Shown here piece after piece: positions 9,969 to 25,359 of a DNA stretch of 64,000 nt. The stretch spans positions 124,001 to 188,000 of the forward strand of contig NZ_BOOO01000008.1 in assembly GCF_016863275.1 (NCBI RefSeq), given 5' to 3'. Position numbers and translations under genes: made by a program. The DNA comes from Planotetraspora mira (GTDB taxonomy: Bacteria > Actinomycetota > Actinomycetes > Streptosporangiales > Streptosporangiaceae). The notes below the pieces were generated by a model. The model was not told the DNA's origin. It saw only the letters and a list, made by a program, of their open reading frames with translations, and searched no databases. The number at the start of each line of letters is the position of its first letter. The first letter of the stretch is position 1.

Positions 9969-9977
9969 AGGTGCACG

Positions 9978-10009
9978 TTGACCGCACGTTAGGGCCCGCT
10001 TCGCATACT
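9978..10009 (+). promoter_or_regulatory. Candidate promoter of the first eCIS operon
   Basis: TTGACC at 9978-9983 and CATACT at 10004-10009 resemble -35 and -10 boxes separated by 20 nt, slightly long. Initiation 6-7 nt after the -10 box would fall on the GTG at 10016, giving a leaderless transcript. No Shine-Dalgarno sequence precedes that GTG. Confidence 0.4.
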
Positions 10010-10015
10010 GACCGC

Positions 10016-10630
10016 GTGAATCGCATCGCGGTGTACGTCCAGGCTCACGACCCCATCCTCCGAGCCGGGGTGACCAGTCAGCTCCGCCAGCGCCCCGAGG
10101 TGCGACTGGTGGGCCAGGACGAGGCGCGGGTCGCCCTCGTCGTCGGCGACACCGTCGACGAGGAGTTGCTGCGATCGTTGAAGGCCCTGCGCTGCCGGGC
10201 CGACCTGCGCATTCTCGTGATCTCCCGGCACGTCGACGACGCCGGCCTGATCGCGGTCATGGAGATCGGGGTCGCCGGGCTGGTCCGCCGGGCGGAGGCC
10301 ACACCCGACCGGCTCCTGGCCATCGTCGAGGCCGCCTCCAAAGGAGAGGGATCCCTGCCGCCCGACCTGCTGGGCCGGCTGCTCTCCCAGGTGGGCAGCG
10401 TCCAGCGCGACGTGCTCGGCCCGCGCGGCCTGTCGTTCACCGGCCTCGCCGACCGGGAGGTGCAGGTGCTGCGCCTGGTCGCGGATGGTTACGACACCGC
10501 CGAGATAGCGGCGCGGCTCTGCTACTCCCAGCGCACCGTGAAGAGCGTCATGCATGACGTCACGACGCGGCTCAACCTGCGCAACCGCTCGCACGCGGTC
10601 GCCTACGCGCTCAGGAACGGCCTGTTGTGA
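10016..10630 (+). CDS. LuxR-type regulator with degenerate receiver domain, eCIS-linked
   Basis: 204 residues from a GTG at 10016. The C-terminal LuxR helix-turn-helix is intact (FTGLADREVQVLRLVADGYD, IAARLCYSQRTVKSVMHDV). The N-terminal half folds like a receiver (RIAVYVQAHDPILRAGV), but the expected phosphoacceptor region reads ALVVGDTVDEE and the conserved Lys is replaced in LVRRAE, so ordinary phosphorelay is doubtful. Its stop overlaps the GTG of the DUF4255 cap gene, tying its expression to the machine. By position it is the cluster's own regulator. Confidence 0.85.
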   Translation: MNRIAVYVQAHDPILRAGVTSQLRQRPEVRLVGQDEARVALVVGDTVDEELLRSLKALRCRADLRILVISRHVDDAGLIAVMEIGVAGLVRRAEATPDRLLAIVEAASKGEGSLPPDLLGRLLSQVGSVQRDVLGPRGLSFTGLADREVQVLRLVADGYDTAEIAARLCYSQRTVKSVMHDVTTRLNLRNRSHAVAYALRNGLL

Positions 10631-11244
10631 TCCACGAAATCGACGAGGCCCTGCGGAACCTGATCCGCGAGAACGCGCTGGCCGGCAGCGGAATCGAGGT
10701 GCTGCTCGAGGCGCCGACGAAGGAGTGGGCGGCCCGGCGGAACACCCCCACCGTCAACATGTACCTCTACGACATCCGCGAGGACCTGCGCAGGCGCGAA
10801 CTGGGCCGGATCCCGGAGTACGACTCCGACGGCCGGATCACGGCACGTCACCGGCCGCCTCGCCACATGAAGCTGTCCTACCTCGTCACCGCCTGGACGC
10901 AGCGGCCGGAGGACGAGCACCGGCTGCTCTCGTCGATGCTGGTCGTCCTGCTCGCCAACGAGATGATGCCGCCGTCGCGGCTCACCGGGTCCCTCGCCGA
11001 ACTGGGGCTTCCCGTGCCGATGACCGTGGCGTCGCCGCCTCCGGAGGACCGCGCGTTCGCCGACGTCTGGACGGCTCTCGGCGGCGAGCTGAAGCCCTCG
11101 CTGGACGTGGTCGTCAGCGTGCCCGTCCCTGCCGTGCCGCCGGAGCCGGCGGCCCCGCTGGTGACGGAGGACCTGGTAGCCCGGGTCGTGAACAGGCAGA
11201 CCCGCATCGCGATGTCCCGCCAGGCGAAGGACCGGCGACCGTGA
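10627..11244 (+). CDS. DUF4255 (Pvc16-like) tail terminator/cap protein
   Basis: 205 residues. The N-terminal MIHEIDEALRNLIRENAL and VNMYLYDIREDLRRRE are typical of the DUF4255/Pvc16 N-terminal family, whose AFP/PVC members cap the distal end of tube and sheath. The family's LSYLVTAWTQRPEDEHRLLS stretch is also present. The GTG start overlaps the upstream stop in TTGTGA, and its own stop overlaps the ATPase GTG. The C-terminal tail is rich in Pro and Ala. In AFP/PVC clusters cap and ATPase genes come last; here they lead. Confidence 0.92.
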   Translation: MIHEIDEALRNLIRENALAGSGIEVLLEAPTKEWAARRNTPTVNMYLYDIREDLRRRELGRIPEYDSDGRITARHRPPRHMKLSYLVTAWTQRPEDEHRLLSSMLVVLLANEMMPPSRLTGSLAELGLPVPMTVASPPPEDRAFADVWTALGGELKPSLDVVVSVPVPAVPPEPAAPLVTEDLVARVVNRQTRIAMSRQAKDRRP

Positions 11245-13316
11245 CCGACCCCGGCGTGACGCACCTGTTCGGGCGGCTCGGCCTCGTCGAGCGGCGGGTC
11301 CGCGGCGCCGTCGCCGCCTTCCGCGCCCGCGATCCGATCCCGGACGACCCCTTCCGCGGCCTCTACCTCTCCGACCAGGCGGTCGAGGAGATCCTGCGCT
11401 CGCGACGGCTGCCCATCGGGGACGGCGATCCCGGTCTCGCCGAAGTGGAGGCCGCCGCGGACCAGGCGGAGGCCGCGGGCGGGCGGTCCCGGCTCCGCGA
11501 CCTCACCGCCGCCGCCGGCCTGAGCCACCTCGACGTCGAACTCCTGCTCGCCGCCGTGCTGCCCGACGTGGACAGCCGCTACGAGCAGCTCTACGGCTAC
11601 CTGAACGACGACGTCACACGGCGGCGGGCCACGGTCGGGCTCGCCCTCCGGCTCTGCGGCATGCAGGAGGCCTCGGCACACGCGCGGGCCCGGCTGGACG
11701 CGCTGGCCGATCTCGGGCTCCTGGTCGTGGAGGAGCCCGAGCGGCCGCTGCTGTCCCGCACGCTCCGGGTGCCGGACCGAGTGGTCGCGCACCTGCTCGG
11801 CGACGACCGGCCCGACGCCGCGCTCGCGGCGGTTCTCACCCTCCCCGCCGCCCACACGACAGCCGGCACGACCATCGACACGACGATCGACACGGCAGCC
11901 GGGGGGCGGGCAGCGGTGACGCTTCCCGGAGCCGAACGGCTGGCGCGAGCCGTACAGAACGGTGTCCGTCTCGTCTACCTGCGGGAACGCGCCGGAGGAA
12001 GCGGGCACGCACTCGCCGTGGCCGCGCTGTCCCGAGCGGGCGCCGGGGCGCTCTGCGCGGACGCCGCCCGGCTCACCCCCAACCTCGCGCGCTCGCTCTA
12101 CCGTGAGGCGCTGCTGACCGGACGCGGAATCGTCATCGGTCCGATCTCCGGCCCGCTTCCCGCGCCACCGAGCGCGAACGTCGTCGTCATCATGTACGGC
12201 ACGGCCCCCTTCGACCCGCACTGGAGCTCCACTCCCCCGCTGCCCGCCGACGTGGAAGCCGTACCCGGCGCGGTGCGGGCGGAGTTGTGGCGCGACGCGC
12301 TGAACGGCCTGCTCGCGCCAGGAGCCGACCCGGACGCCGCGACCGCCCATTTCACGCTGGGCCCCCAGCAGATCACCCGGGCGGCGACGGCGGCCACCCT
12401 CATCGCGCTCGCGGAGGAGAGCCCGCTGCGCGCCGACCATCTGCGGCTCGGCGCACGCGCCCAGAACGCGGGCGGCCTCGAACGGCTGGCCCGCAGGATC
12501 GAGCCGGCCGTGGGCTGGGACGACCTCGTCCTTCCCCCCGACGTCACAGCACAACTCCGGGAGCTCGCCGCGCGGGCGAGGCACCGGGACACGGTGCTCG
12601 GCGAATGGCGGATGCGGCCGGGAGGCGGCCGCGGCCGTGGCGTGACCGCCCTGTTCGCGGGCGACTCCGGCACGGGCAAGACCATGTCGGCGGAGGTCAT
12701 CGCCGCGTCGCTCGGTCTCGACCTGTACACCGTGAACCTGGCGACGGTCGTCGACAAGTACGTCGGCGAGACCGAGAAGAACCTGGAGCGGATCTTCGCC
12801 GAGGCGGCGGGGGTCAACGGCGTCCTGCTGTTCGACGAGGCCGACGCGATCTTCGGCAGGCGGTCGGAGGTCCGCGACGCGCACGACAGGTACGCCAACA
12901 TCGAGAGCGCGTACCTGTTGCAGCGCATGGAGACCTTCGACGGCCTCGCGATCCTGGCCACCAACCTGCGCGCCAACCTCGACGAGGCCTTCACCCGGCG
13001 GCTCGACCAGGTGGTGGACTTCCCCGTGCCCTCCTCCGACCTGCGGCACACGTTGTGGGACCGGTGCCTGGGGGCGCGTCTGCCACGCGACCCCGACGTG
13101 GACCTCGACTTCCTCGCGCGCTCCTTCGAACTCGCGGGCGGGCACATCCGGTCGGTCGCGATCACGGCCGCCTACCTGGCGGCGACGTCAGGTGAACCGG
13201 TGTGCATGGCGGACCTCGTCGGGGCCGTCGCCCGGGAGTACCGCAAACTCGGACGCCTCTGCCTGGAGCGGGAGTTCGGGACCTATCTCTCCCTCGTCAC
13301 CCCGGAGCGCCGATGA
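11241..13316 (+). CDS. AAA+ ATPase of the eCIS (Pvc15/Afp15-like)
   Basis: 691 residues. The C-terminal AAA+ module has Walker A GDSGTGKT near residues 474-481, Walker B LLFDEADA near 529, and a sensor/arginine-finger stretch ATNLRANLDEAFTRRLD. The N-terminal ~450 residues are helical with winged-helix-like parts, as in eCIS ATPases. These proteins are conserved in eCIS loci and are implicated in assembly or cargo handling. GTG at 11241 overlaps the DUF4255 stop by 4 nt, and its own stop overlaps the next ATG. An in-frame extension further upstream belongs to no known domain and was not used. Confidence 0.93.
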   Translation: MTDPGVTHLFGRLGLVERRVRGAVAAFRARDPIPDDPFRGLYLSDQAVEEILRSRRLPIGDGDPGLAEVEAAADQAEAAGGRSRLRDLTAAAGLSHLDVELLLAAVLPDVDSRYEQLYGYLNDDVTRRRATVGLALRLCGMQEASAHARARLDALADLGLLVVEEPERPLLSRTLRVPDRVVAHLLGDDRPDAALAAVLTLPAAHTTAGTTIDTTIDTAAGGRAAVTLPGAERLARAVQNGVRLVYLRERAGGSGHALAVAALSRAGAGALCADAARLTPNLARSLYREALLTGRGIVIGPISGPLPAPPSANVVVIMYGTAPFDPHWSSTPPLPADVEAVPGAVRAELWRDALNGLLAPGADPDAATAHFTLGPQQITRAATAATLIALAEESPLRADHLRLGARAQNAGGLERLARRIEPAVGWDDLVLPPDVTAQLRELAARARHRDTVLGEWRMRPGGGRGRGVTALFAGDSGTGKTMSAEVIAASLGLDLYTVNLATVVDKYVGETEKNLERIFAEAAGVNGVLLFDEADAIFGRRSEVRDAHDRYANIESAYLLQRMETFDGLAILATNLRANLDEAFTRRLDQVVDFPVPSSDLRHTLWDRCLGARLPRDPDVDLDFLARSFELAGGHIRSVAITAAYLAATSGEPVCMADLVGAVAREYRKLGRLCLEREFGTYLSLVTPERR

Positions 13317-15187
13317 ACTGCGCCAGTTGTGGCACCAGCAATCCACCCGGAGCCCGGTTCTGCGCGAACCCCGGCTGCGGGGCGTATCTCTCCTGGTCCG
13401 GGCAGGCCCCGGCCGAGGAGAGGCAACCGCAGACCGCGTTGCGGCCACAGGCGGGCGGCAAGACGGGCATGCGGATGGAACTCGACGCGACGGACCTGAC
13501 GGCCGAGCCCGGCACCGGCGCGCAGTCGCGGGCCACCGTGCACAACACCGGGACCCGGGTCGAGCGGTTCGCGCTGACCGTCACCGGCACCGCGGCCCGC
13601 TGGGCCGCCGTCGACCCCGGGGAGCTCACGGTCTATCCGGGCGACGCCGCCACCGCGACGATCACCTTCACGCCGCCCCGCTCCCCCGCCGGACCGGCGG
13701 GCACCTGGGACTTCGTCGTGGCGGCGGCCTCCATGGTCAGCGGCGGCCTCCGCGACGACGTGCCCGGCAGGCTCACGATCGGGAGGTTCCACGCGCTGAA
13801 GGCCGTACTGTCACCCGCCGCGTCCCGTGGCGGCGTCCGTACGCGGCACTCGCTGATGCTGGAGAACCAGGGCAACGCCCCTGAGGACCTGCGGCTCGCC
13901 GCCACCGACGCGGAGAACGAGTTGCGCATCGGGCTGCCCGCCCAGGTGCGGCTCGACCCCGGCAAGGCGGCGGTCTCCGTCGAGGTCGGGGCGGCGCCCG
14001 CGACGTTCGGCATGCCGAAACGGGTGCCGTTCACGGTGGTCGTGACCCCGGCGGGCCAACCACCCGTCACGGCGGAGGGCACCCGCATCGTCACCCCCCG
14101 GTTCGGCCGCTGGCCGCTCGTCGTGGCGCCTGTGCTGGTCATCGCCCTCGTCGCGGGCGTCCTCGCGCTGACCCGTTCCTCCACCGGCCCGCCCGCCACG
14201 GCGGGGGCGGGAAGCACGGCCGCCCCGGACGGCGGCTCGGACACGACCGCCCCGGACGGCGGCTCGGACACGACCGCCCCGGAGGAGGCCACGAACGGGA
14301 ACTCGGCCGCACCGGGCGAGGGGGCGAAGCCCACCCCCAAGGCGACCGTGAAGAAGACGCCGAAACCGGTGACCCCTCCGGCGTACGTCGCCGGCAAGGG
14401 CGAGCTCACGGGCGGCGTGGCGGAGGTCGCCGTACGGAACCTCGCCTCCAGCGCGAGGATCTTCCTCACCCCGGATCTGACCGCCATCACGATGGCGGGC
14501 ACGACCATCGGCGACGACCGCCCGCGCACCGGGGGCAACTTCCCCGCCGCGGCGCTGCGGGTGACCGGGCGCGAGAAGAGCTCGTTCCGGGTCGGGCCGG
14601 TCACCGGCGACTCGCCCGACGGCCTGCGTTTCAGTTATCTCGTGGTCGACCGGCAGCGGGGAACCCTCGGCGGCCTGCCGTACGAGGCGGGCAGTGCGCG
14701 CATCGGAACCGGCCAGCAACGGGTGCAGGTCTCCGGCATCGAGACCGCGACTCCGGACAGCGTGATCATCCTGACCGTGCGGGACGGCGGCCAGGCCGTG
14801 CGGATCGACGACAAGGAGCAGGGCGGCTTCATCGCGTCGACCCTCGACGCCTCGGCCGCGACGTCCGAGGTCGCCTTCGACTATCTCGTCGTGGACCCGG
14901 CCGGGGACGGGAAGGGGCAGGTGAAGGCCGCCGCCGGGCTCGCCAGGACCGTTCCGGGCAACGTCGGCGTCGCCGCTCCCCGGCTTGAGCACGACGTGAT
15001 CGGCCTCCGATCGGCGGTGCTCCTCACGCCGGACGCCACGAGCTACCGGGACGACACCGGCCTCTACGCCTCGGCGTTGACGGACGTCTGCGTGCTGAGC
15101 CAGGGCGACGGCTTCGCCGAGGTCGAGCCGTTCTACACCCGGCGACCATTCGTGAAGATCCCATATGACTGGCTGGTCGTGACATGA
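13313..15187 (+). CDS. Zinc-ribbon/Ig-like membrane protein 1 with C-terminal beta repeats
   Basis: 624 residues. A four-cysteine zinc ribbon (CASCG and CANPGCG, residues 3-25) comes first, then two Ig-like NEW3/CARDB-type domains (about 45-260, with ATVHNTGTRVERF and LENQGNAPEDLRL). One transmembrane helix follows (LVVAPVLVIALVAGVLAL, about 266-287), then a Gly/Asp/Thr linker with a perfect 27-nt repeat. The C-terminal part holds three beta-rich repeats ending FSYLVV, FDYLVV and YDWLVV. Topology is probably cytoplasmic ribbon and Ig domains with an outside C-terminus. It is the first of three adjacent paralogues. I infer, but cannot show, a membrane docking role. Confidence 0.85.
   Translation: MNCASCGTSNPPGARFCANPGCGAYLSWSGQAPAEERQPQTALRPQAGGKTGMRMELDATDLTAEPGTGAQSRATVHNTGTRVERFALTVTGTAARWAAVDPGELTVYPGDAATATITFTPPRSPAGPAGTWDFVVAAASMVSGGLRDDVPGRLTIGRFHALKAVLSPAASRGGVRTRHSLMLENQGNAPEDLRLAATDAENELRIGLPAQVRLDPGKAAVSVEVGAAPATFGMPKRVPFTVVVTPAGQPPVTAEGTRIVTPRFGRWPLVVAPVLVIALVAGVLALTRSSTGPPATAGAGSTAAPDGGSDTTAPDGGSDTTAPEEATNGNSAAPGEGAKPTPKATVKKTPKPVTPPAYVAGKGELTGGVAEVAVRNLASSARIFLTPDLTAITMAGTTIGDDRPRTGGNFPAAALRVTGREKSSFRVGPVTGDSPDGLRFSYLVVDRQRGTLGGLPYEAGSARIGTGQQRVQVSGIETATPDSVIILTVRDGGQAVRIDDKEQGGFIASTLDASAATSEVAFDYLVVDPAGDGKGQVKAAAGLARTVPGNVGVAAPRLEHDVIGLRSAVLLTPDATSYRDDTGLYASALTDVCVLSQGDGFAEVEPFYTRRPFVKIPYDWLVVT
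14221..14274. repeat. 27-bp perfect tandem repeat in linker
   Basis: Two identical 27-nt units (14221-14247 and 14248-14274) encode APDGGSDTT twice in the linker just after the transmembrane helix. It looks like slippage-driven linker length variation. Confidence 0.9.
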
Positions 15188-16206
15188 CTTTGACATGCGC
15201 CAAGTGCGGCTTCCAGAACGTCGGCGGAGCCCAGTTCTGCGCGAACCAGACGTGCGGCGCCTACCTTCCGTGGGACCGTGCCCGGCAGCCGGAGACGGGC
15301 CGGGTACCCGTCGCCGAGCAGCGCGCGGGCCTGCGCATCGATCTCGCGGAGGCGTCCCTGACGGTCGAGCCGGGCCAGACGATCGGGACCCAGGTGACGA
15401 TCCACAACACCGGGACCCGCGTCGAGCAGTTCCAGCTGCGGCTGTTCGGGCCTGCCGCGGCGTGGGGGCAGGCCGACCCGGCCGAGCTCGCCGTCTATCC
15501 GGGCACCAAGGCCACCTGCGCGTTGCGCTTCACCCCACCCCGCTCGTCGGCGGCCGGTGCCGGCCGGTGGGATTTCGGCGTCCTCGTCGAGTCGTCGGTC
15601 AACACCGGTCTGCACGCGGACGCGACCGGCTGGCTCACGGTCGGCACGTTCTCCGCGCTCACGGCCGAGCTGTGGCCGCAGGTCACACGTGGCCGGGGAA
15701 CGACGGAGCACTCCCTCATCCTCGACAACCAGGGCAACCTCTCCGAGGTGGTGAAGCTGAGCGCCACCGACGAGTCCGGCGAACTCCGGCTCGACCTGCC
15801 CACATCGGTCTCCGCCGTTCCCGGCCGGACGACCGTGCCCATCAGGGTGACCGTGGTGAGCGGCCAGGACGACGGCCGGACCTACCGCTTCACCGTCACC
15901 GCGGCCGCGCGCGACCGCGCGCCGATCGCCGTGAACGGCTCTCGCGCGGTCCCGGCTCCGCCGCGGCCCCAGCCGAAGCCGGCCCCCGCGCCCCCGCCGC
16001 CGCGGCCCGAGCCGCCGCCGGAACCCCCGCGGCCGCAGGTCGTGTACGTCCCGTCGGGCGCGCAGCGGCAGCGCAGGGCAGGCTGCCTCGGCGGACTGGT
16101 CAAACTGGTGCTCTGGTGTGTCGTCATCGCCCTGCTGCTCGCGGCCGCATCCTGGGCATACGACAACCAGGACCAGGTGCGATCGTGGCTGGAGGGCCTG
16201 CAATGA
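15184..16206 (+). CDS. Zinc-ribbon/Ig-like membrane protein 2, C-terminally anchored
   Basis: 340 residues. The same zinc ribbon (CAKCG, CANQTCG) and two Ig-like domains as its neighbours are present (IHNTGTRVEQFQLRL; LDNQGNLSEVVKLS). After a proline-rich stretch and a basic patch it ends with one transmembrane helix, LVLWCVVIALLLAAASWAY, and about 18 more residues. Unlike the flanking paralogues it has almost no domain beyond the membrane, so it could be a plain anchor or scaffold. ATG at 15184 overlaps the previous stop by 4 nt; the next gene overlaps its stop likewise. Confidence 0.87.
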   Translation: MTLTCAKCGFQNVGGAQFCANQTCGAYLPWDRARQPETGRVPVAEQRAGLRIDLAEASLTVEPGQTIGTQVTIHNTGTRVEQFQLRLFGPAAAWGQADPAELAVYPGTKATCALRFTPPRSSAAGAGRWDFGVLVESSVNTGLHADATGWLTVGTFSALTAELWPQVTRGRGTTEHSLILDNQGNLSEVVKLSATDESGELRLDLPTSVSAVPGRTTVPIRVTVVSGQDDGRTYRFTVTAAARDRAPIAVNGSRAVPAPPRPQPKPAPAPPPPRPEPPPEPPRPQVVYVPSGAQRQRRAGCLGGLVKLVLWCVVIALLLAAASWAYDNQDQVRSWLEGLQ

Positions 16207-17681
16207 GCGTCACGTGTGCGGTCTGCGGCCAGGTCAACGCCGAAGGCACCCAGTTCTGCGTCAACCCCTCCTGCGGCGCGTACCTGCCGTGGGACCGGAC
16301 GGCGACCCACCGCCCACCCGCCCAGGAGCCGCCGCCACCGGACCAGCGGGGTTCGACCTCCCACCCGCCGCAGCCCGAGGCGCAACCGCAGACCGCCCGG
16401 CACGAGCGGGTGGAGCAGGAGCAGCGGTCGGGGGCGCGGATCGAGCTCGCCGATCCCACGCTCACGGTCGACCCGGGGCAGATCGCGGAGACCCAGGCGA
16501 CCATCCACAACACCGGGAACCGGGTGGAGCGGTTCCTGGTCCGCGTCTCCGGCCCCGCGGCGTCCTGGGCGAGCGTCGAGCCCGCCGACCTCACCGTCTA
16601 TCCCGGCCGTCCGGGTGTCTGCACCGTGAGGTTCGCGCCCTCCCGCCAGGCGGCCTCGTCCGCGGGCACGTGGAGCTTCGGTGTGCTCGCCGACTCGCAG
16701 GTCACCTCCGGCCTGCAGGCGAGCGCCGTCGGAGCGGTGCACCTGGGCGGTTACCGGTCGCTCACGCTGACGCTCGAACCGGGCGCCGCTCGCGGCGGGA
16801 GCCGTACGACGCAGACGCTGCTGATCGACAACCAGGGCAACGTTCCCGAGCGGTTACGGCTCACCGCGTCCGACACCGACGGGCTGCTGAGTTTCGAACT
16901 CCCGGCAGGCACGACCGTCGAGCCGGGCAGGTCGGCGGTCCCGTTCCAGGTGCACGCCCGGCAGGAATGGCTCGGCAAGCCGCAGCGGATTCCGTTCCAC
17001 ATCGTGGCCACACCGGAGGAGGGTCAGCCGGTGAGCGCCGACGGCGTACGGATCGTCCGGCCGCGGCTGGGCGTGCTGCCGCTGGTTCTGGCCGGCGCCC
17101 TGGTGGCCGTCCTCGCCGGGGGCCTGGCGCTCAACCTGCGGCCGTCCTCGTCCGAGACGGGTTCCGGCCCGATGGCGGTGGCGGGATCGCCCACGCAGGA
17201 GGACGCCTCTCCGGCGCCGGGGGTCACGATGCGGTCTCCCGAACCCCCCTCGCCGTCGCCTTCTCCCCCTCCGCCTCCATCACCATCACCATCACCGTCG
17301 CCGTCGCCGTCGCCGTCGCCACGGGTGAAGACCCCCGCACCTCCTCCGGTGAACCCCGCGTCGCAACTGCTCGTCGAGTATCACCGGTCGGGCGGCTTCG
17401 CCGGGTTCGCCGATCGGATCACGGTGTTCGGGGACGGCCGCGCCACGGTCACCCGGGTGACGACCAACGTGGACACCACACTCACGCCCGAGGAGTTGGC
17501 CGGGCTCACCGAGAATCTCGGGCGACTGGAGCTCGGCGAACCCGCGCCGGAGCCCGGCGGGGCCGACCACATCACGTACGAGCTGATCGTGAACGGTGAG
17601 CGGTCCGTCCGTTACGACGCCCTGCCGCAGGACTGGCAGGACGTGACGGCCATCCTCGACCAGGTGATCGAGCGCCAGTAG
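16203..17681 (+). CDS. Zinc-ribbon/Ig-like membrane protein 3 with emfourin-like C-terminal domain
   Basis: 492 residues. Zinc ribbon (CAVCG, CVNPSCG), a Pro/Gln-rich linker, two Ig-like domains (IHNTGNRVERFLVRV; IDNQGNVPERLRL) and a transmembrane helix VLPLVLAGALVAVLAGGLAL near residues 288-310. A Ser-Pro repeat follows, then a C-terminal domain (about 384-492) with RSGGFAGFADRITVF, LTPEELAGLTENL and ITYELIVNGE. That pattern resembles emfourin, the protealysin inhibitor family, and related SGGFAG extracytoplasmic domains; the match is by eye only. It is the last gene before a hairpin. Confidence 0.85.
   Translation: MSVTCAVCGQVNAEGTQFCVNPSCGAYLPWDRTATHRPPAQEPPPPDQRGSTSHPPQPEAQPQTARHERVEQEQRSGARIELADPTLTVDPGQIAETQATIHNTGNRVERFLVRVSGPAASWASVEPADLTVYPGRPGVCTVRFAPSRQAASSAGTWSFGVLADSQVTSGLQASAVGAVHLGGYRSLTLTLEPGAARGGSRTTQTLLIDNQGNVPERLRLTASDTDGLLSFELPAGTTVEPGRSAVPFQVHARQEWLGKPQRIPFHIVATPEEGQPVSADGVRIVRPRLGVLPLVLAGALVAVLAGGLALNLRPSSSETGSGPMAVAGSPTQEDASPAPGVTMRSPEPPSPSPSPPPPPSPSPSPSPSPSPSPRVKTPAPPPVNPASQLLVEYHRSGGFAGFADRITVFGDGRATVTRVTTNVDTTLTPEELAGLTENLGRLELGEPAPEPGGADHITYELIVNGERSVRYDALPQDWQDVTAILDQVIERQ
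17277..17320. repeat. Hexanucleotide microsatellite encoding Ser-Pro repeats
   Basis: An uninterrupted run of hexamers, first of the CACCAT type and then of the CGCCGT type, encodes alternating Ser and Pro between the membrane helix and the emfourin-like domain. Such tracts change length by slippage and act as stiff extended spacers. Confidence 0.85.
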
Positions 17682-17694
17682 GGGTGCCGTGCCC

Positions 17695-17720
17695 GAAGGG
17701 GCGGTCTCCGCCGCCCCTTC
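17695..17720 (+). terminator. Perfect hairpin ending the first eCIS operon
   Basis: GAAGGGGCGG at 17695-17704 pairs perfectly with CCGCCCCTTC at 17711-17720 over a 6-nt loop. It starts 13 nt after the stop of the third zinc-ribbon gene and separates it from the DUF4157 gene. Confidence 0.75.
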
Positions 17721-17797
17721 GTACGGACCTCCGGTCCTTCTTGCCCGCTGCGGAGCATGTCAGCGTCGGGGAGACGACACTGCTCCCAGGGGGCGCT

Positions 17798-18439
17798 ATG
17801 CACAGGCATGCCGGTGACCTCGGCGCGGAGTTCCGGCCGCCGGGCGACCGCGCGCGAGCCGACGAGGGGGCGGCTCTCGAGGCGGGGGGAATGGATCCGC
17901 GCGGCCTGCTCGGCCTGCAGCGCACGGCGGGCAACGCGGCGGTCAGCGGGATGCTGGAGGAGGAACGCTCGCCGGTCCACGATGTGATCTCCTCGGGCGG
18001 TCAGGCCCTCGACCACGAGGTCAGGGCCGACATGGAGGGCAGGTTCGGCGCGGACTTCTCCGACGTGCGGATCCACACGGGCGAGCAGGCCCGGCACTCG
18101 GCCACCTCCGTGAACGCCCAGGCGTACACGGTCGGGTCGAATGTCGTGTTCCAGCACTACGACCCGTCCTCCGACGCCGGCCGTCACATGCTCGCCCACG
18201 AGCTCACGCACGTCATCCAGCAGCGCAACGGCCCGGTGGACGGCACGGAGGCGGGGGGCGGCGTGCGGGTCAGCGACCCGTCCGACCGCTTCGAGCGCGA
18301 GGCCTCGGCCACCGCCGACCACGTGATGTCGGCGCCTGCCCCCGCCGTTCAGCGCGAGGAGGCGCCGGAGGAAGAGGAGCCGACGGCCCAGACGTACGTC
18401 CAGCGCCAGGAAGAACCCGAGGAAGAGCAGGCGGAGTAG
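17798..18439 (+). CDS. DUF4157 (eCIS core domain) protein
   Basis: 213 residues. The DUF4157 domain spans about residues 60-150, with MEGRFGADFSDVRIHTGEQA and MLAHELTHVIQQ; the HExxH zinc-peptidase motif is intact near residues 132-136. DUF4157 is a hallmark of eCIS loci. Upstream lies LLGLQRTAGNAAVSGML near residue 40; the tail is acidic and Gln-rich with repeated QR(E/Q)E motifs. The ATG at 17798 has AGGGGG just upstream. No downstream catalytic Glu or further domain is obvious, so it may bind metal, process cargo or serve as a loading factor. Two bases separate it from the effector gene. Confidence 0.9.
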   Translation: MHRHAGDLGAEFRPPGDRARADEGAALEAGGMDPRGLLGLQRTAGNAAVSGMLEEERSPVHDVISSGGQALDHEVRADMEGRFGADFSDVRIHTGEQARHSATSVNAQAYTVGSNVVFQHYDPSSDAGRHMLAHELTHVIQQRNGPVDGTEAGGGVRVSDPSDRFEREASATADHVMSAPAPAVQREEAPEEEEPTAQTYVQRQEEPEEEQAE

Positions 18440-18441
18440 CC

Positions 18442-20409
18442 GTGCGCGCGCACACGGAACGCGGACACTCCTCGGACGACGAGACCCGGGCGGCGAAGCG
18501 GACGGCGCAAGCGTCCGACGAGGGGCTCGCCCACCTGCAGAGGGCAGCCGGCAACACCGCGGTGCGAGGCCTGATGTCACGGGCTCCCGCACTCCAGTCA
18601 CCGGCCGTTCAGACCGCGCCGCCCACGTCGGCGCCGCCCGCCGCCGAGAACGCGGCCAAGTCCCCCGTCGCGACTCTCACCGAGCAGGTCGTCGCGGGCC
18701 AGTTCAAAGAGGCGCTGCTCTACCTCAACGGGCTTCCGATCGAGTACATGCTGGACTACCTGGAGAAGCTGGGTTTCGCCAACGCGAGCTACCTGCTGGC
18801 CAACCTGGGGACGGTGGCCGGGCTCGGAGGTCCTTCGGTCGCCCGGCTGGAAGCGGCGATTCGCACGACCGGCATCCGGCAGACGGGCACCTTCTCCGAC
18901 CTGCTGATCCCCCTGCTGGATGCACTCAGCCGATCCGGGCTGCGTCAGCACTTCTCTGATCAGTACCTCGCGATCCGTGCCAAGGTGCGGCCACCTGCAG
19001 GCGGCTGGAACACACTCCTCCATCAGTATTTCGAGATGGCCCACCTGGGACCACTCGTCGAGTTGACGGTGGCGGACGACGTCTTCCGGGTGCTCGACTT
19101 CCTGCCCACCGCCGAGACGAACCAGGCGGTGAGCGCTCTCGGGCAGTCCGAACTGATCCTCCTCCTCAAGAACGGCCGGAGCGCCGACCGCTTCCCCGAA
19201 GGCGACCGGGTCAAGGCGTCGCTCGACGCCACCTGGCGCGCACAGTTCCCGGGGGTGGAACCACCCTGGCCGAAGGCGCCGACCGTCTCGGGACGGAACG
19301 TCGCGGCGATGTCCACGATGGACAAGCTCGCCGAATCGATCCGACGGTCCGAGAAGTACGGCGGAGCCGAGGTCAGCGGGAAGCTGGAGGAACTGCTCGC
19401 GCCCGCGTCTCTCGCGATGATCGCGGGCACGACGATCCTGTTCGCGGTGCTGGAGATGGGCACCGGTGGAACCGCCGGCCTCGTCATGCTCGGACTGTCG
19501 GCGTTGATGGTGGGCCCGGAGGTCTACACCATCGCCGGAGACATCAAGGCGTTCATCACCACGGCGGCCGGCGCAAACGACGAGATGGACCTCGACCTGG
19601 CCGGAAGCCATTTCGCCAAGGCGGCTGTGGCGATCAGCATCGACATCCTGATCGCCGTCCTGCTGCACAAACCGACCAAGATGGCGACTCCCAAGATCCA
19701 GGCGGGAGCGCGGGCGGCGGGCGAGTTCCTGAAGACCGCGGTGCCGATGCGGGGACAACGTCAACTGGTCCCGGCCCTCGTCATGGCCGGGGACGGACCG
19801 CGCTTCGTCCAGGCCTCGCCCGAACAACTGGCGGTGCTCGAGTCGACGGGAGGGCCGGCGCCTGCTCCGTTCGAGCAGCTCAGCGACTCCGCACTGAGAA
19901 AGTTGGCCACGACGGACAAGGCCGCCGCAGAGGCACTCATCAGACGCTACTGGACGATGCCGAAGAAGAAGCTGCAGGGCAAGGCCAGGAACGGCGACGG
20001 GACGGCGCAGTACGTGCTGGAACAGCGGATCAACCCCAATGACGAGGCACTGCGGAAGGCGCAGGGCAGCGACTACCGTCCCCCTCACACCGCCGAAGTG
20101 ATCGTCACTCGGCCCGGCGTGGGCGAGGTCTCGAGGGACACGCTCAACAGCGGCAACATGACGGACCTCGAGGCCGCGGAGGGATGGCCGGAGAGCGCGC
20201 TGCTCACCCACACGGAGGCGCGTGCCGTACGCAATCCGGACCTGCAGCGCGGCGACACCATGACCATCATGGGGCAGTACGACCCCTGCGGGTCCTGTGT
20301 CGCACGGATGCGGCTGGCGGCCGACCGGCTCGGCATCCGGATCGACTACCACTGGATGGGCGGGCACAGATCCTTCGAGCCGATGACCCTCGTCAGAGGA
20401 CCGCGATAG
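18442..20409 (+). CDS. Candidate eCIS effector with C-terminal deaminase-like domain
   Basis: 655 residues from a GTG two bases after the DUF4157 stop. Near residue 32 it carries HLQRAAGNTAVRGLM, matching the motif in the DUF4157 protein. The middle is helical and includes a hydrophobic region, LMIAGTTILFAVLEMGTG-like through ALMVGPEVYTIAG. The C-terminus shows HTEARAV near residue 589 and GQYDPCGSC near residue 614. This is the HxE plus PCxxC zinc signature of the cytidine-deaminase-like fold used by many bacterial toxins, by eye closest to Pput_2613-like members. No immunity gene follows. The target, nucleic acid or nucleotide, is unknown. Confidence 0.8.
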   Translation: MRAHTERGHSSDDETRAAKRTAQASDEGLAHLQRAAGNTAVRGLMSRAPALQSPAVQTAPPTSAPPAAENAAKSPVATLTEQVVAGQFKEALLYLNGLPIEYMLDYLEKLGFANASYLLANLGTVAGLGGPSVARLEAAIRTTGIRQTGTFSDLLIPLLDALSRSGLRQHFSDQYLAIRAKVRPPAGGWNTLLHQYFEMAHLGPLVELTVADDVFRVLDFLPTAETNQAVSALGQSELILLLKNGRSADRFPEGDRVKASLDATWRAQFPGVEPPWPKAPTVSGRNVAAMSTMDKLAESIRRSEKYGGAEVSGKLEELLAPASLAMIAGTTILFAVLEMGTGGTAGLVMLGLSALMVGPEVYTIAGDIKAFITTAAGANDEMDLDLAGSHFAKAAVAISIDILIAVLLHKPTKMATPKIQAGARAAGEFLKTAVPMRGQRQLVPALVMAGDGPRFVQASPEQLAVLESTGGPAPAPFEQLSDSALRKLATTDKAAAEALIRRYWTMPKKKLQGKARNGDGTAQYVLEQRINPNDEALRKAQGSDYRPPHTAEVIVTRPGVGEVSRDTLNSGNMTDLEAAEGWPESALLTHTEARAVRNPDLQRGDTMTIMGQYDPCGSCVARMRLAADRLGIRIDYHWMGGHRSFEPMTLVRGPR

Positions 20410-22088: not shown

Positions 22089-22532
22089 ATGGCACTCCCC
22101 GAGATGGACACCTCTGTCGGTCACTCCTTCGGCCTGGAGATCGACGGCATCGTCATCAAGCAGATCAGCGAGGTGTCCGGGCTCAAGATGGAGCAGGACG
22201 TCATCGACCTGCCGCAGAACACGGCCGACGGCAAGTTCATGCGCAAGAAGCTGCCCGGCCGTCCGAAGCCCGGAGAGGTGACGCTCTCGCGCGGTCTCAC
22301 GAACGACCAGAGCTTCGAGAAATGGGCCAAGGACGCCCAGTTCGGCAAGATGAAGGACGCCAGGAAGGGCGGCGCCATCATCGTGTACGACTTCGAGGGC
22401 GTCGCCATCAAGCGGTACAAGCTGCACAACGCCTGGCCGAAGAGCCTGGAGATCGGCACCCTCAAGGCCGGCGACACCACCGTGCTGATGGAGAAGCTCG
22501 TCATCGTGCACGAGGGGATGGAGCCCGCGTGA
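22089..22532 (+). CDS. Inner tube protein (T4 gp19-like), main
   Basis: 147 residues with the gp19-family pattern SVGHSFGLEIDGIVIKQISE at the start and KLVIVHEGMEPA at the end. It should polymerise as hexameric rings inside the sheath. AAGGAG at 22076-22081 lies 7 nt before the ATG at 22089; a GTG three bases earlier is in frame but less well placed. The following gene starts at its stop in a TGATG overlap. Confidence 0.96.
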   Translation: MALPEMDTSVGHSFGLEIDGIVIKQISEVSGLKMEQDVIDLPQNTADGKFMRKKLPGRPKPGEVTLSRGLTNDQSFEKWAKDAQFGKMKDARKGGAIIVYDFEGVAIKRYKLHNAWPKSLEIGTLKAGDTTVLMEKLVIVHEGMEPA

Positions 22533-23062
22533 TGCGCCGCACCGCCCCGGCCGCCATGTCGCCAGTGGGGATGTCCACTGCGGAGATGTCCGGCGTCGCC
22601 GTCCCGGGTGCGGGCGATCCCGGCAGGGCCGCGGCCGACACGGGCGACCACGCACAGGACGGCCGGCCGTACGGCGGGCCCCGGCGCGAGACCATGCGCA
22701 CGGAGTTCGCGTTCGAACTGCCCCGAGGCTACGTCGACGAGTACGGCACGGTCCACCGTGACGGCGTCATGCGTCTGGCCACCGCGCGGGACGAACTGGT
22801 CCCGCTCAGGGACGACCGGGTGCGCGAGAACCGCGCCTATCTCACGGTGGTTCTGCTCGGCCGGGTCGTCACGCGCATCGGGACCATCACCGACGTCCAT
22901 CCCGGGCTGATCGAGAACTTCTTCGCCTCCGATCTGGCCTTCCTGCAGGACCTGTACCGGCGGGTGAACAGCGAGGGCCAGTCGCGGGCGGCCGTCGCCT
23001 GCCCCGAGTGCCGCCACGAGTTCACGGTCGACCTCTCGGGCAGCCGCCTGGGGGAACCGTGA
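22532..23062 (+). CDS. Conserved eCIS tail protein with Met-rich N-terminal extension
   Basis: 176 residues. The conserved-looking part begins at MRTEFAFELPRGYVDEYG (residue 55) and includes LIENFFASDLAFLQDLYRRV and a CPECRHEF knuckle near the C-terminus. A protein of this kind sits between tube and DUF6760 in actinobacterial eCIS loci; its role may resemble a tail assembly chaperone. The first 54 residues are low-complexity and methionine-rich. The 1-nt TGATG overlap with the tube gene supports the upstream start; ATG 22694 is an alternative. Confidence 0.75.
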   Translation: MRRTAPAAMSPVGMSTAEMSGVAVPGAGDPGRAAADTGDHAQDGRPYGGPRRETMRTEFAFELPRGYVDEYGTVHRDGVMRLATARDELVPLRDDRVRENRAYLTVVLLGRVVTRIGTITDVHPGLIENFFASDLAFLQDLYRRVNSEGQSRAAVACPECRHEFTVDLSGSRLGEP

Positions 23063-23196: not shown

Positions 23197-25359
23197 ATGC
23201 GGTGGCCATGGACGCGCTCCGAGCCCGGGCGACCCGGCGAGGACGGCGCACGGACCGGGACCCGGGAGGACGCGCGAGCCGAGGCGACGGCCGCCGCGCT
23301 CCCGGACGCACACGCCGGGACACCGGCCGGGACCCGGCCGGACGCCCTGGTGGAGACGCGGCCGGTGCATCGCGGTGAGTGGCGATCGTTGCCACCGCTC
23401 CAGCGAGTCGTCGGCCCGCACCCGCTGGTCAATCCCGGCGACGCGTTCTCCGGCGCGCTGACGGCCTGGCGGAACCCGTCGTCGCTGGCGCCGCTCGGCC
23501 ACTACGTCGTGGACCGGCCCGGCGGCCTCATCGGCTCCCTCTCCCCCGGTACGGCTCCCGCCGAACGACCGGGCACGCCGGACGACGACCATGCGCCGGT
23601 ACGGCACGCGTCCACGGCCCCGGCCGGGCCCGAGCCGGTGACGATCTCCCGGTGGGCGGCTCCGGCACCCTCTCCCGGCGCGCTGCCGGTCGTGAGCCGT
23701 GAGGACGGATCCTCGCTCGTGGACGCGGGGTCGCACGGCCCGATGGGGGAAGGCGTGCGCGTCGAGGTTTCTCATGGAAGCACGCAGGCGTTCCCGGGAG
23801 AATCCTCGGGCGACGGCCTCCGCCATGTGGTGAGCGCCCAGGACGACTCCTGGGGTGCCCACACGGTCGACGCCCCACACGACGCCGGGGGCGCTCACGC
23901 CATCGGCACCGGGGACGGCTCGGCGCACATTCACGCGGGTGACGCCGACCTCGCGGGAGGCGGCATGCGTGCGCTCGCGGGCGACACGTCCTTGAGCACG
24001 TATGCCGCCGAGGCCGCTCCGCCGCTCTTTCACGAGACCGCCTCAGGGCAGGTCTCCGCGAAGGAGGCCGGGCCGCGGAGCCACCGCGAACCGCAGGCAG
24101 AGGGTCTTCCCTCTGTGCAGCGGACGGCCGGACGGCGGCTCGGACTCGGCCCACCCCTCGAAGGCGACGCGCGGGGCAACGGCCTGCCCGTGGACGCGCC
24201 GGGAAACGGCCTGTCTGCGCACGCACTGGGAGGCTCGCCGACTCGAACACCCGGCGCAGGACGGTCGTCCGGCCGGACGAGCGGGTCGGACGTCACGCCC
24301 ACGGTCGCGCGGATGGAAGCGCCCGGCGCCCCCAGCCCCACGGACTCGTCGATCCAGGCGCGCACACTCATCCGATCGGCCACCCGTGACCCGGCGGAGA
24401 CGCCGTCCGGCGTGCGGGCACCGGTGGACGCGGACCCCGTCGCGCCCACGCTCGGGTGGGATCGGCTCGACATACCCGTGCACTCGGCCGACTCCGGTCG
24501 CACCACCACCGGAGCGGAAGGAGCGGGCACCACGGCCGCCCAGGGGCTCGGCGAACCCGTTCAACGGACGCCGGCGGGCACCGTCACCTCCCGAGGTCCG
24601 GGCGAACCTGTTCGTCGGACCACAGCTGGAACCGAAGTCCCGGCCGGCGATCGGCCGGATGTCGTCGCGCGAGCCGTACGACTGGAAGCGGAGCCGACGC
24701 GTCCCCTCCTGGGCCTGAGCCTGATGCCAGAGGCGCCACAGGCCGTTTCCGGTCTGCTCTTCGACGACGGCGCGCACCGGACCCCCGGCGATCCCGCCGC
24801 AGGCGGTCCCCCGGTCACGCGACCGGCCATCAGGCAGACGGAGGAGCCGGGGCTCCAGCGCTTTACGGGCATGGGGGCGCGTACCCCGCTCCGGGAAGCG
24901 GCCTGGCCGGCGAGTCCCCCGGGAATCCGGACGGCCGGCTTCAGCGCACAAGCCATGCCTGCCGTACAAGCGTTCAGCGCGCACGCCATGCCGACCGTGC
25001 AGACCGTGCAGGCCCTCGGCACTCCTGCGGACTCCTCCGGCACCGGAGCGGAGTCCGGCCGCGCGGCGCCGTACGGCATGGCGGAGATGGCGGAGCACGT
25101 CGTGATGCGGCTGGCGGCGTCGGGAATCCCGGTGGCCCGCCAGGAGGATCCCGTCGCCGACCGGCCGGAAGTCGTGGAACCGCCACCCCAGGTAGCGCCG
25201 CCGGCGGAACCGGCGGGACGCGCGCCCGGGGACGCGAAGCAGGACCAGGAACTGGTGGGACGCCTGCTCGAACCGCTGCTGCGCCGCCTCAGGGCCGAGC
25301 TCTGGCTGGAACGCGAGCGCCGCGGCGACCTGTCGGAACCGGGCGGAAGGCGTTTTTGA
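23197..25359 (+). CDS. Large disordered eCIS-linked protein of unknown function
   Basis: 720 residues rich in Gly, Pro, Ala, Thr, Arg and Asp, with little predicted secondary structure. Two islands look constrained: LQRVVGPHPLVNPGDAFSGA with YVVDRPGGLIGSL near residues 70-115, and a C-terminal helix LLRRLRAELWLERERRGDL. Between them lie short degenerate repeats such as GEPVQRTPAGT/GEPVRRTTAGT and SAQAMPAVQAF/SAHAMPTVQTV. Its slot, between DUF6760 and the second tube gene, is not where AFP/PVC tape measures lie, and it lacks their long helices. ATG at 23197 is 6 nt after the DUF6760 stop. A scaffold, length-setting or tube-lumen role is possible but unproven. Confidence 0.75.
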   Translation: MRWPWTRSEPGRPGEDGARTGTREDARAEATAAALPDAHAGTPAGTRPDALVETRPVHRGEWRSLPPLQRVVGPHPLVNPGDAFSGALTAWRNPSSLAPLGHYVVDRPGGLIGSLSPGTAPAERPGTPDDDHAPVRHASTAPAGPEPVTISRWAAPAPSPGALPVVSREDGSSLVDAGSHGPMGEGVRVEVSHGSTQAFPGESSGDGLRHVVSAQDDSWGAHTVDAPHDAGGAHAIGTGDGSAHIHAGDADLAGGGMRALAGDTSLSTYAAEAAPPLFHETASGQVSAKEAGPRSHREPQAEGLPSVQRTAGRRLGLGPPLEGDARGNGLPVDAPGNGLSAHALGGSPTRTPGAGRSSGRTSGSDVTPTVARMEAPGAPSPTDSSIQARTLIRSATRDPAETPSGVRAPVDADPVAPTLGWDRLDIPVHSADSGRTTTGAEGAGTTAAQGLGEPVQRTPAGTVTSRGPGEPVRRTTAGTEVPAGDRPDVVARAVRLEAEPTRPLLGLSLMPEAPQAVSGLLFDDGAHRTPGDPAAGGPPVTRPAIRQTEEPGLQRFTGMGARTPLREAAWPASPPGIRTAGFSAQAMPAVQAFSAHAMPTVQTVQALGTPADSSGTGAESGRAAPYGMAEMAEHVVMRLAASGIPVARQEDPVADRPEVVEPPPQVAPPAEPAGRAPGDAKQDQELVGRLLEPLLRRLRAELWLERERRGDLSEPGGRRF

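What the first reader, a model, noticed from the sequence alone, without database searches (positions are those of the whole stretch)
13313..17681. Three tandem zinc-ribbon/Ig-like membrane proteins with different C-termini
Three consecutive genes share a four-Cys zinc ribbon, two Ig-like domains and one membrane helix, but differ beyond the helix: three beta repeats ending (F/Y)x(Y/W)LVV, nothing, or an emfourin-like domain. Triplication inside the ATPase operon suggests a membrane platform for the particle, with shared inner parts and specialised outer parts. I recall that a membrane protein (CisA) has been reported to matter for membrane association of Streptomyces CIS; whether these proteins are related is open.
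Basis: partly seen in the sequence, partly recalled or inferred. Interest (0 to 1): 0.8.

Follow-up and report, generated by a model that had tools for sequence, protein, structure and literature searches.

The report
CIS membrane proteins with swappable ends
A soil bacterium carries, inside the gene cluster for a phage-tail-like injection machine, three sister membrane proteins with the same inner part and different outer parts; their relatives go with most machines of this type and look like docking platforms, although the best-studied relatives have been published as the machine's toxins.

Summary
Three ATGA-coupled genes follow the ATPase of a contractile injection system (CIS) in a Planotetraspora-genus actinomycete. 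They share a four-Cys ribbon, two PapD/ASH-like Ig domains and one membrane helix, and differ beyond it.

The family is CIS-bound: of 394 class-level genomes, 45 of 50 with a CIS marker have it, 4 of 344 without; 3 of those 4 do carry CIS genes.

It is very probably the family of Streptomyces coelicolor Sco4256-4258, published as CIS effectors, so not a new kind of system. I could not align to Sco4256 itself.

Three points appear new. (1) The window type has an N-terminal ribbon ending YLxW, as in the membrane adaptor CisA; 0 of 23 other ribbons checked have LxW. (2) CIS with ribbon-bearing Ig proteins lack CisA (0 of 10); ribbon-less ones often have it (31 of 44). (3) Outer modules in relatives include ricin, PASTA and peptidoglycan-binding domains; the window's own outer parts match none of these. 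Separately, Sco4256 was listed as a membrane glycoprotein.

I lean to a resident membrane docking platform over injected toxins, roughly 60:40. That role is inferred, not shown.

The parts
13313..15187 (+). P1, 624 aa: ribbon-Ig-Ig-TM-beta repeats
13313..13396 (+). P1 N-terminal four-Cys ribbon ending GAYLSW (residues 1-28)
   Evidence: invariant Cys; LxW control
13469..14092 (+). P1 Ig pair (residues 53-260), PapD/ASH-like
14111..14173 (+). P1 membrane helix (residues 267-287)
14384..15184 (+). P1 beta module with three LVV ends (residues 358-624)
   Evidence: no Pfam match for the G148 orthologue, no PDB relative by profile
15184..16206 (+). P2, 340 aa: ribbon-Ig-Ig-Pro-rich-TM, 21-residue tail
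16084..16140 (+). P2 hydrophobic segment (residues 301-319)
16203..17681 (+). P3, 492 aa: ribbon-Ig-Ig-TM-Pro/Ser linker-alpha/beta domain
17076..17135 (+). P3 membrane helix (residues 292-311)
17367..17675 (+). P3 C-terminal domain (residues 389-491), weak emfourin likeness
9971..10630 (+). LuxR-type regulator at the head of the operon
10627..11244 (+). Pvc16-type CIS protein
11241..13316 (+). AAA+ ATPase; the GTG start at 11241 is my choice inside a longer open frame
17684..18439 (+). eCIS_core domain protein just after P3
20511..31532 (+). sheath, tubes, spike, gp25, baseplate J and Tail_P2_I genes of the CIS

Best explanation
P1-P3 are single-pass membrane proteins of the producing cell. 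The ribbon and the two Ig domains lie in the cytoplasm and one helix crosses the membrane. P1 and P3 put a folded module outside on a flexible linker; P2 has almost nothing outside. They belong with the Sco4256-4258 family that goes with actinobacterial CIS of the Streptomyces type. Most likely the inner parts dock the cytoplasmic particle, or its loading machinery, at the membrane, and the outer modules read or grip the envelope, so that firing happens in place and under stress. In Streptomyces the LxW ribbon sits on CisA and the Ig pair on Sco4256-type proteins; in the window lineage both are in one chain and CisA is absent, with three copies giving three outer parts. Shown here: architecture, confinement to CIS, exchange of modules, the shared ribbon type, the complementarity with CisA. 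Inferred: topology, docking, sensing.
For: Distribution: 45 of 50 marker genomes against 4 of 344. Ribbon ending LxW in P1-P3 and in CisA-like proteins (first ribbon of 27 of 43 ORFs), in 0 of 23 other ribbons. Fusion-like complementarity: CisA in 0 of 10 genomes with ribbon-bearing Ig proteins in the CIS, 31 of 44 with ribbon-less ones. G050 has a ribbon-LxW protein without Ig that carries P1's beta module, so CisA-type heads and P1-type tails recombine. In Actinomycetospora an Ig protein stands in the CisA place. Outer modules of relatives: RicinB_lectin_2 10, PG_binding_1 5, PASTA 4, ChW 3, LysM 1 of 86 C-terminal parts; the CisA C-terminal domain is F5/8C-like. Charges flanking the helix favour N-in in P1 (K+R 3 against 1), P2 (4/1), P3 (3/1). 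No signal peptide is apparent by eye (not computed). SCO4256 is listed as a glycosylated membrane protein with one helix and no signal peptide (PMC6593405, section 7 part 1 read). CisA and Sco4256 were both found in all three particle purifications of PMC10020575. CisA, an adaptor, is toxic in E. coli too, so toxicity there does not mark an effector.
Against: The S. coelicolor triple deletion leaves most tubes empty (about 85%), which fits cargo. In the window itself neither outer part matches a wall- or glycan-binding family. The commonest Pfam hit behind the helix, CarboxypepD_reg (20 of 86), is not wall-specific. Charge bias over the family is weak: 47 of 106 favour N-in, 28 are equal, 31 the reverse. 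The glycoprotein list also holds cytoplasmic proteins such as S15, so it does not prove an outer face. No contact with the particle was tested. The complementarity is not corrected for relatedness, and two named loci (L086, L105) have both. If G288, G309 and G524, whose ribbon-bearing paralogues lie away from CIS genes, were counted as ribbon genomes, CisA would be in 3 of 13.
Confidence: 0.55

Rival explanations
1. P1-P3 are injected effectors (the published reading of Sco4256-4258): cargo carried in the tube, whose helix and outer-type modules harm membrane or wall after firing.
For: PMC10066040: E. coli toxicity, empty tubes, loss of nisin-induced death in the triple mutant (section 11 read). 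PMC10020575: Sco4256 in all three particle purifications; putative toxin.
Against: No Pfam toxin domain in P1-P3. The gene next door already encodes an eCIS_core protein and the one after it a deaminase. Other actinobacterial cargo described in print has or pairs with a DUF4157/CIS core domain (passages of PMC11126660 and abstract of PMC13277306). The ribbon shared with the adaptor CisA, and CisA absence where it is fused, are not expected of cargo. Glycosylation in the producer's membrane fraction.
Confidence: 0.35
2. P1-P3 are loading or assembly factors that act with the neighbouring ATPase at the membrane, to fill the tube, without a part in firing.
For: Gene coupling with the ATPase in the window (coordinates) and ATPase neighbourhood in many relatives; empty tubes in the triple mutant.
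Against: Does not explain the exchange of outer modules or the link with CisA, which is needed for firing.
Confidence: 0.07
3. Generic envelope proteins that merely sit near CIS genes.
For: Related ribbon-Ig-TM proteins lie away from CIS genes in G288, G309 and G524; one weak Ig hit in G383 has no CIS genes near.
Against: Co-occurrence with CIS; G288, G309 and G524 have CIS elsewhere; CIS function is lost in the S. coelicolor triple mutant.
Confidence: 0.03

Closest known systems
Sco4256-4258 of the Streptomyces coelicolor CIS (published as CIS-associated effectors)
   Same: Three tandem genes in the CIS cluster; similar N-terminal part, one TM, varied C-terminal part; first domain likened to pilus chaperones, as here.
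   Different: The Streptomyces relatives I fetched have no N-terminal ribbon by pattern; ricin-type ends rather than the P1 beta module or the P3 domain; I could not compare the Sco sequences themselves.
CisA (Sco4242)
   Same: Ribbon with LxW, TM, outer domain; CIS-bound; published as N-in/C-out.
   Different: No Ig pair; disordered inner part with a second ribbon; F5/8C-like outer domain; encoded after the baseplate genes. P1-P3 lack that domain and place.
WxL-interacting protein (WxLIP, Enterococcus)
Emfourin
   Same: P3 residues 395-466 match weakly.
   Different: 17.7 bits, below the 27-bit cut-off.

Membership tests
Sco4256-4258 family | Encoded in a CIS cluster, rare elsewhere | tested here: met
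Sco4256-4258 family | One TM between a shared N-terminal part and a varied C-terminal part | tested here: met
Sco4256-4258 family | First domain like pilus chaperones (PapD-like) | tested here: met
Sco4256-4258 family | Direct sequence similarity to Sco4256-4258 | not testable with these tools
Sco4256-4258 family | Needed for tube filling and stress-induced death | not testable with these tools
   published for Sco4256-4258
CisA | F5/8C-like C-terminal domain | tested here: not met
   no A7 match in G000 at E 1e-8
CisA | N-terminal ribbon ending LxW (my observation, not a published criterion) | tested here: met
   control
CisA | Gene directly after the baseplate genes | tested here: not met
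   P1-P3 lie after the ATPase; the next listed long frame after 31532 is on the other strand
WxLIP | Fold of the Ig pair | tested here: inconclusive
Emfourin | Pfam PF20242 above its cut-off | tested here: not met
   17.7 bits against 27

The most novel reading that the evidence does not exclude
The CIS effectors of the Sco4256-4258 type are not injected. With CisA they form a modular membrane platform: an LxW ribbon and an Ig pair hold the cytoplasmic particle, and exchangeable outer modules (ricin, PASTA, PG_binding, F5/8C, the P1 beta module) sense or grip the cell wall and license firing. The window shows the fused form that makes CisA dispensable.
Probability: 0.4. Interest if true: 0.85.

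Novelty: new variant of a known kind. Interest (0 to 1): 0.6.

Why it matters
How a phage-tail-like machine that floats in the cytoplasm of a Gram-positive bacterium finds its own membrane and decides to kill the cell is open. CisA is one needed part, yet many CIS lack it: in the class sample 22 of 50 marker genomes have no CisA match. The data say that Sco4256-type proteins go with 45 of those 50, that in some CisA-less clusters they carry CisA's own type of ribbon, and that outer parts include wall- and glycan-binding modules. This turns the question of effector or platform into a direct test in S. coelicolor and offers a candidate receptor side for stress sensing.

Tried and rejected
CisA as a full homologue: rejected (no CisA C-terminal domain in the window genome). 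Homologues in viral contigs: none confirmed. Solved relatives of P1 and P3 by sequence: none convincing; the P1 beta module profile finds none either. The positive-inside rule as family-wide proof: too weak. Uniqueness of the window: rejected, three of four other genomes of the genus in the order sample keep all three genes, and the fourth, G104, has neither CIS marker nor CisA match. In the order search 10 further genomes had weak hits (E 7.6e-5 to 9.5e-4); I did not follow them up, and one (G002) overlaps an ordinary zinc ribbon.

Literature searches: contractile injection system with zinc ribbon (0 papers); with PASTA and Actinobacteria (1, a review on co-infections, not read); with ricin and Streptomyces (only PMC10066040); with Ig-like (0); two searches gave nothing relevant in the listings. 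'Zinc' does not occur in the main text of PMC12237407 or PMC10066040. PMC10020575 suggests a Zn-binding region just before the TM of Sco4242, not an N-terminal ribbon. 'Glycoprotein' and 'glycosyl' do not occur in PMC10066040 or PMC10020575. Only open-licence papers were searched, no supplements. My notebook entry miscounts the strong hits; the number is 10 including the own genome.
Full report

SURROUNDINGS. The operon runs from a LuxR-type regulator and a Pvc16-type protein through the ATPase, P1-P3, an eCIS_core protein and a deaminase protein to sheath, tubes, spike, gp25 and baseplate. Besides the three genes the own genome has only partial hits to the Pro/Ser-rich stretch. In the order sample (200 genomes) 20 had a hit; 10 were strong (own included). 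The nine others, G060, G148, G169, G172, G050, G164, G191, G199 and G001, all have CIS genes around the hit. The 10 weak ones were not followed up. G060, G148, G169 and G172 keep P1-P3 in order. A FastTree tree of the Ig part (midpoint root, support values not examined) puts P1, P3, P2 and one G050 copy together, and the ribbon-bearing proteins in one group except the set L180-L184. So the three copies seem to have arisen within the family before these genera split.

DISTRIBUTION. In a class-wide draw of 394 genomes at E <= 1e-8, a CIS marker (profile A3) is found in 50, the Ig family (A6) in 49, both in 45 (Fisher 1e-48, not corrected for relatedness). Of the four Ig-only genomes, G266, G417 and G499 have CIS genes on the fetched contig and G383, a borderline hit, has none. 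Of 81 Ig loci typed into, 75 are in marker genomes: 60 lie within 31.2 kb of the marker, one (G288) 1.1 Mb away, 14 on another contig. For these 15 I fetched 11 stretches: ATPase and Pvc16-type genes are beside the Ig gene in 4 (G357, G249, G371, G454), only a LuxR-type hit in 2 (G314, G465), nothing in 5 (G382 C43, G366, G309, G524, G288). The five marker genomes without the family (G027, G029, G293, G420, G551) have diverged CIS genes; in the up to 40 kb fetched I found neither CisA domain, Ig pair nor a ribbon-LxW pattern. The CisA C-terminal domain (A7) is found in 31 of 394 genomes, 28 of them marker genomes, all 28 with the Ig family; the other three (G323, G417, G499) also have CIS genes.

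NAMED CIS LOCI. 14 of the 80 hold an Ig protein (L052 and L053 are the G060 and G172 records again); most reach only about 10 kb upstream of the marker. The gene just after the baseplate genes in Streptomyces and Amycolatopsis loci looked at has the CisA layout and begins with a ribbon that tblastn aligns with those of P1-P3 at E 1e-4 to 8e-4. I call these CisA by place and layout; CisA's own sequence was not at hand. In Actinomycetospora (L067) an Ig protein stands in that place and a second beside the ATPase.

RIBBON. By a strict pattern 25 of 108 Ig proteins (redundant set) have a ribbon and 24 of them end in (Y/F)LxW; the exception is the G050 PASTA protein. L067 has one that only a looser pattern finds. 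Of 43 CisA-like ORFs, 27 have LxW on the first ribbon (27 of the 32 with two ribbons found) and 1 on the second, where a spurious first match (L086) shifted the count. Control: PF13240 loci from 13 related genomes, 47 matches listed, 30 loci returned, 28 resolved. LxW is in 5: four P1 orthologues (own genome included) and one CisA-like protein beside baseplate genes (L205). It is in 0 of the other 23, about half of which are orthologues of one another.

SHUFFLING. Behind the helix occur ricin lectin, PASTA, PG_binding_1, collagen repeats, CarboxypepD_reg-like repeats and unassigned domains. In 86 C-terminal parts, close relatives included: CarboxypepD_reg 20, RicinB_lectin_2 10, PG_binding_1 5, PASTA 4, ChW 3, LysM 1 (one protein can count for several families). 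Of 108 proteins 13 were dropped before (redundant genus copies, no or short C-terminal part), and nine of the remaining 95, the longest or cut at a stretch end, were not submitted. G050 has a ribbon-LxW protein without Ig that carries P1's beta module (29% identity in the alignment). So inner and outer parts recombine. The outer parts of P1 and P3 themselves match no wall- or glycan-binding family.

COMPLEMENTARITY. I asked whether CIS with ribbon-bearing Ig proteins lack CisA. Order sample: G060, G148, G169, G172 and G164 have no match; G050 has only a 6e-4 hit more than 7 Mb from its CIS, which I do not count; ribbon-less G191, G199 and G001 have CisA at E 1e-38 to 1e-53. Class sample: G000, G209, G456 and G544 have none, 28 of the 41 others have it. 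Pooled 0 of 10 against 31 of 44, Fisher 4.8e-5, uncorrected for relatedness: five of the ten are from two genera. G288, G309 and G524 were put with the ribbon-less ones because their ribbon-bearing paralogues lie away from CIS genes. Exceptions among named loci: L086 and L105 have both. Ribbon and Ig pair thus occur on two proteins of one cluster or fused on one, which by the domain-fusion argument suggests that CisA and Sco4256-type proteins act together (inference).

LITERATURE. Casu 2023 (PMC10066040, section 11 read; passages): Sco4256-4258, one TM each, highly similar N-termini, ricin-type C-termini in two; homologues in 47 of 94 CIS-positive Streptomyces; toxic in E. coli; triple deletion gives mostly empty tubes and no nisin-induced death; named effectors. 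No complementation of that mutant is described in the section read. Vladimirov 2023 (PMC10020575, section 11 and passages): Sco4256 and Sco4242 in all three purifications; relatives of Sco4256 in 90% of 105 Streptomyces class IId clusters and rarely outside eCIS; first domain like pilus chaperones; putative toxin. Architecture, distribution and fold match what I see, and G304 shows ATPase, two tandem Ig genes (one with a ricin-like end by eye) and sheath. Membership is therefore very likely, though not tested on the Sco sequences. CisA (PMC12237407; abstract, passages, discussion) is bitopic with a cytoplasmic N-terminus, is needed for contraction in cells, and is toxic in E. coli. The glycoproteome paper (PMC6593405, section 7 part 1) lists SCO4256 as a glycosylated membrane protein with one helix and no signal peptide; the list also holds some cytoplasmic proteins. 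That such glycosylation happens outside the membrane is recalled knowledge.

JUDGEMENT. Membership in the published family and confinement to CIS are well supported. Platform against cargo is open. I lean to the platform because a membrane-fraction glycoprotein with envelope-type modules that shares its ribbon type with the adaptor is hard to see as tube cargo, while E. coli toxicity is shared by the adaptor. The strongest contrary fact is the empty-tube phenotype.

Noticed in passing
window 17684-20409: Just after P3 lie an eCIS_core protein (17684-18439, 110 bits) and a 655-aa protein with a Pput_2613-type deaminase domain (87 bits): candidate cargo of this CIS.
   Followed up: partly
L222-L224 (G288, G309, G524): Ribbon (YLGW)-Ig-TM proteins of 711-790 aa open frame, with a longer Ig match than P1-P3, with no CIS genes found in the 20 kb fetched, in genomes that have CIS elsewhere; relatives in G456 and G544 lie beside the CIS ATPase.
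   Followed up: partly
L240-L248 (G027, G029, G293, G420, G551): Five diverged actinobacterial CIS clusters with neither Ig family, CisA domain nor a ribbon-LxW protein in the stretches fetched.
   Followed up: partly
L135, L137, L138, L142, L148-L151, L161: Other lineages have three tandem Ig proteins with very long C-terminal parts (about 500 to over 1000 residues); CarboxypepD_reg repeats are common in the C-terminal set.
   Followed up: no
L067:2641-4725 and 18980-19828 (Actinomycetospora termitidis): One Ig protein with collagen-like repeats beside the ATPase and a second Ig protein without a predicted helix at the CisA position.
   Followed up: partly
window 22529-23062: Small conserved CIS protein of unknown function with a CxxC pair near its end (residues 158-161); it made the best CIS marker here.
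   Followed up: partly
window 23197-25359: A 720-aa protein without Pfam match at E 0.1 that changes fast within the genus (49-79% identity) while its neighbours are 84-100% identical.
   Followed up: no
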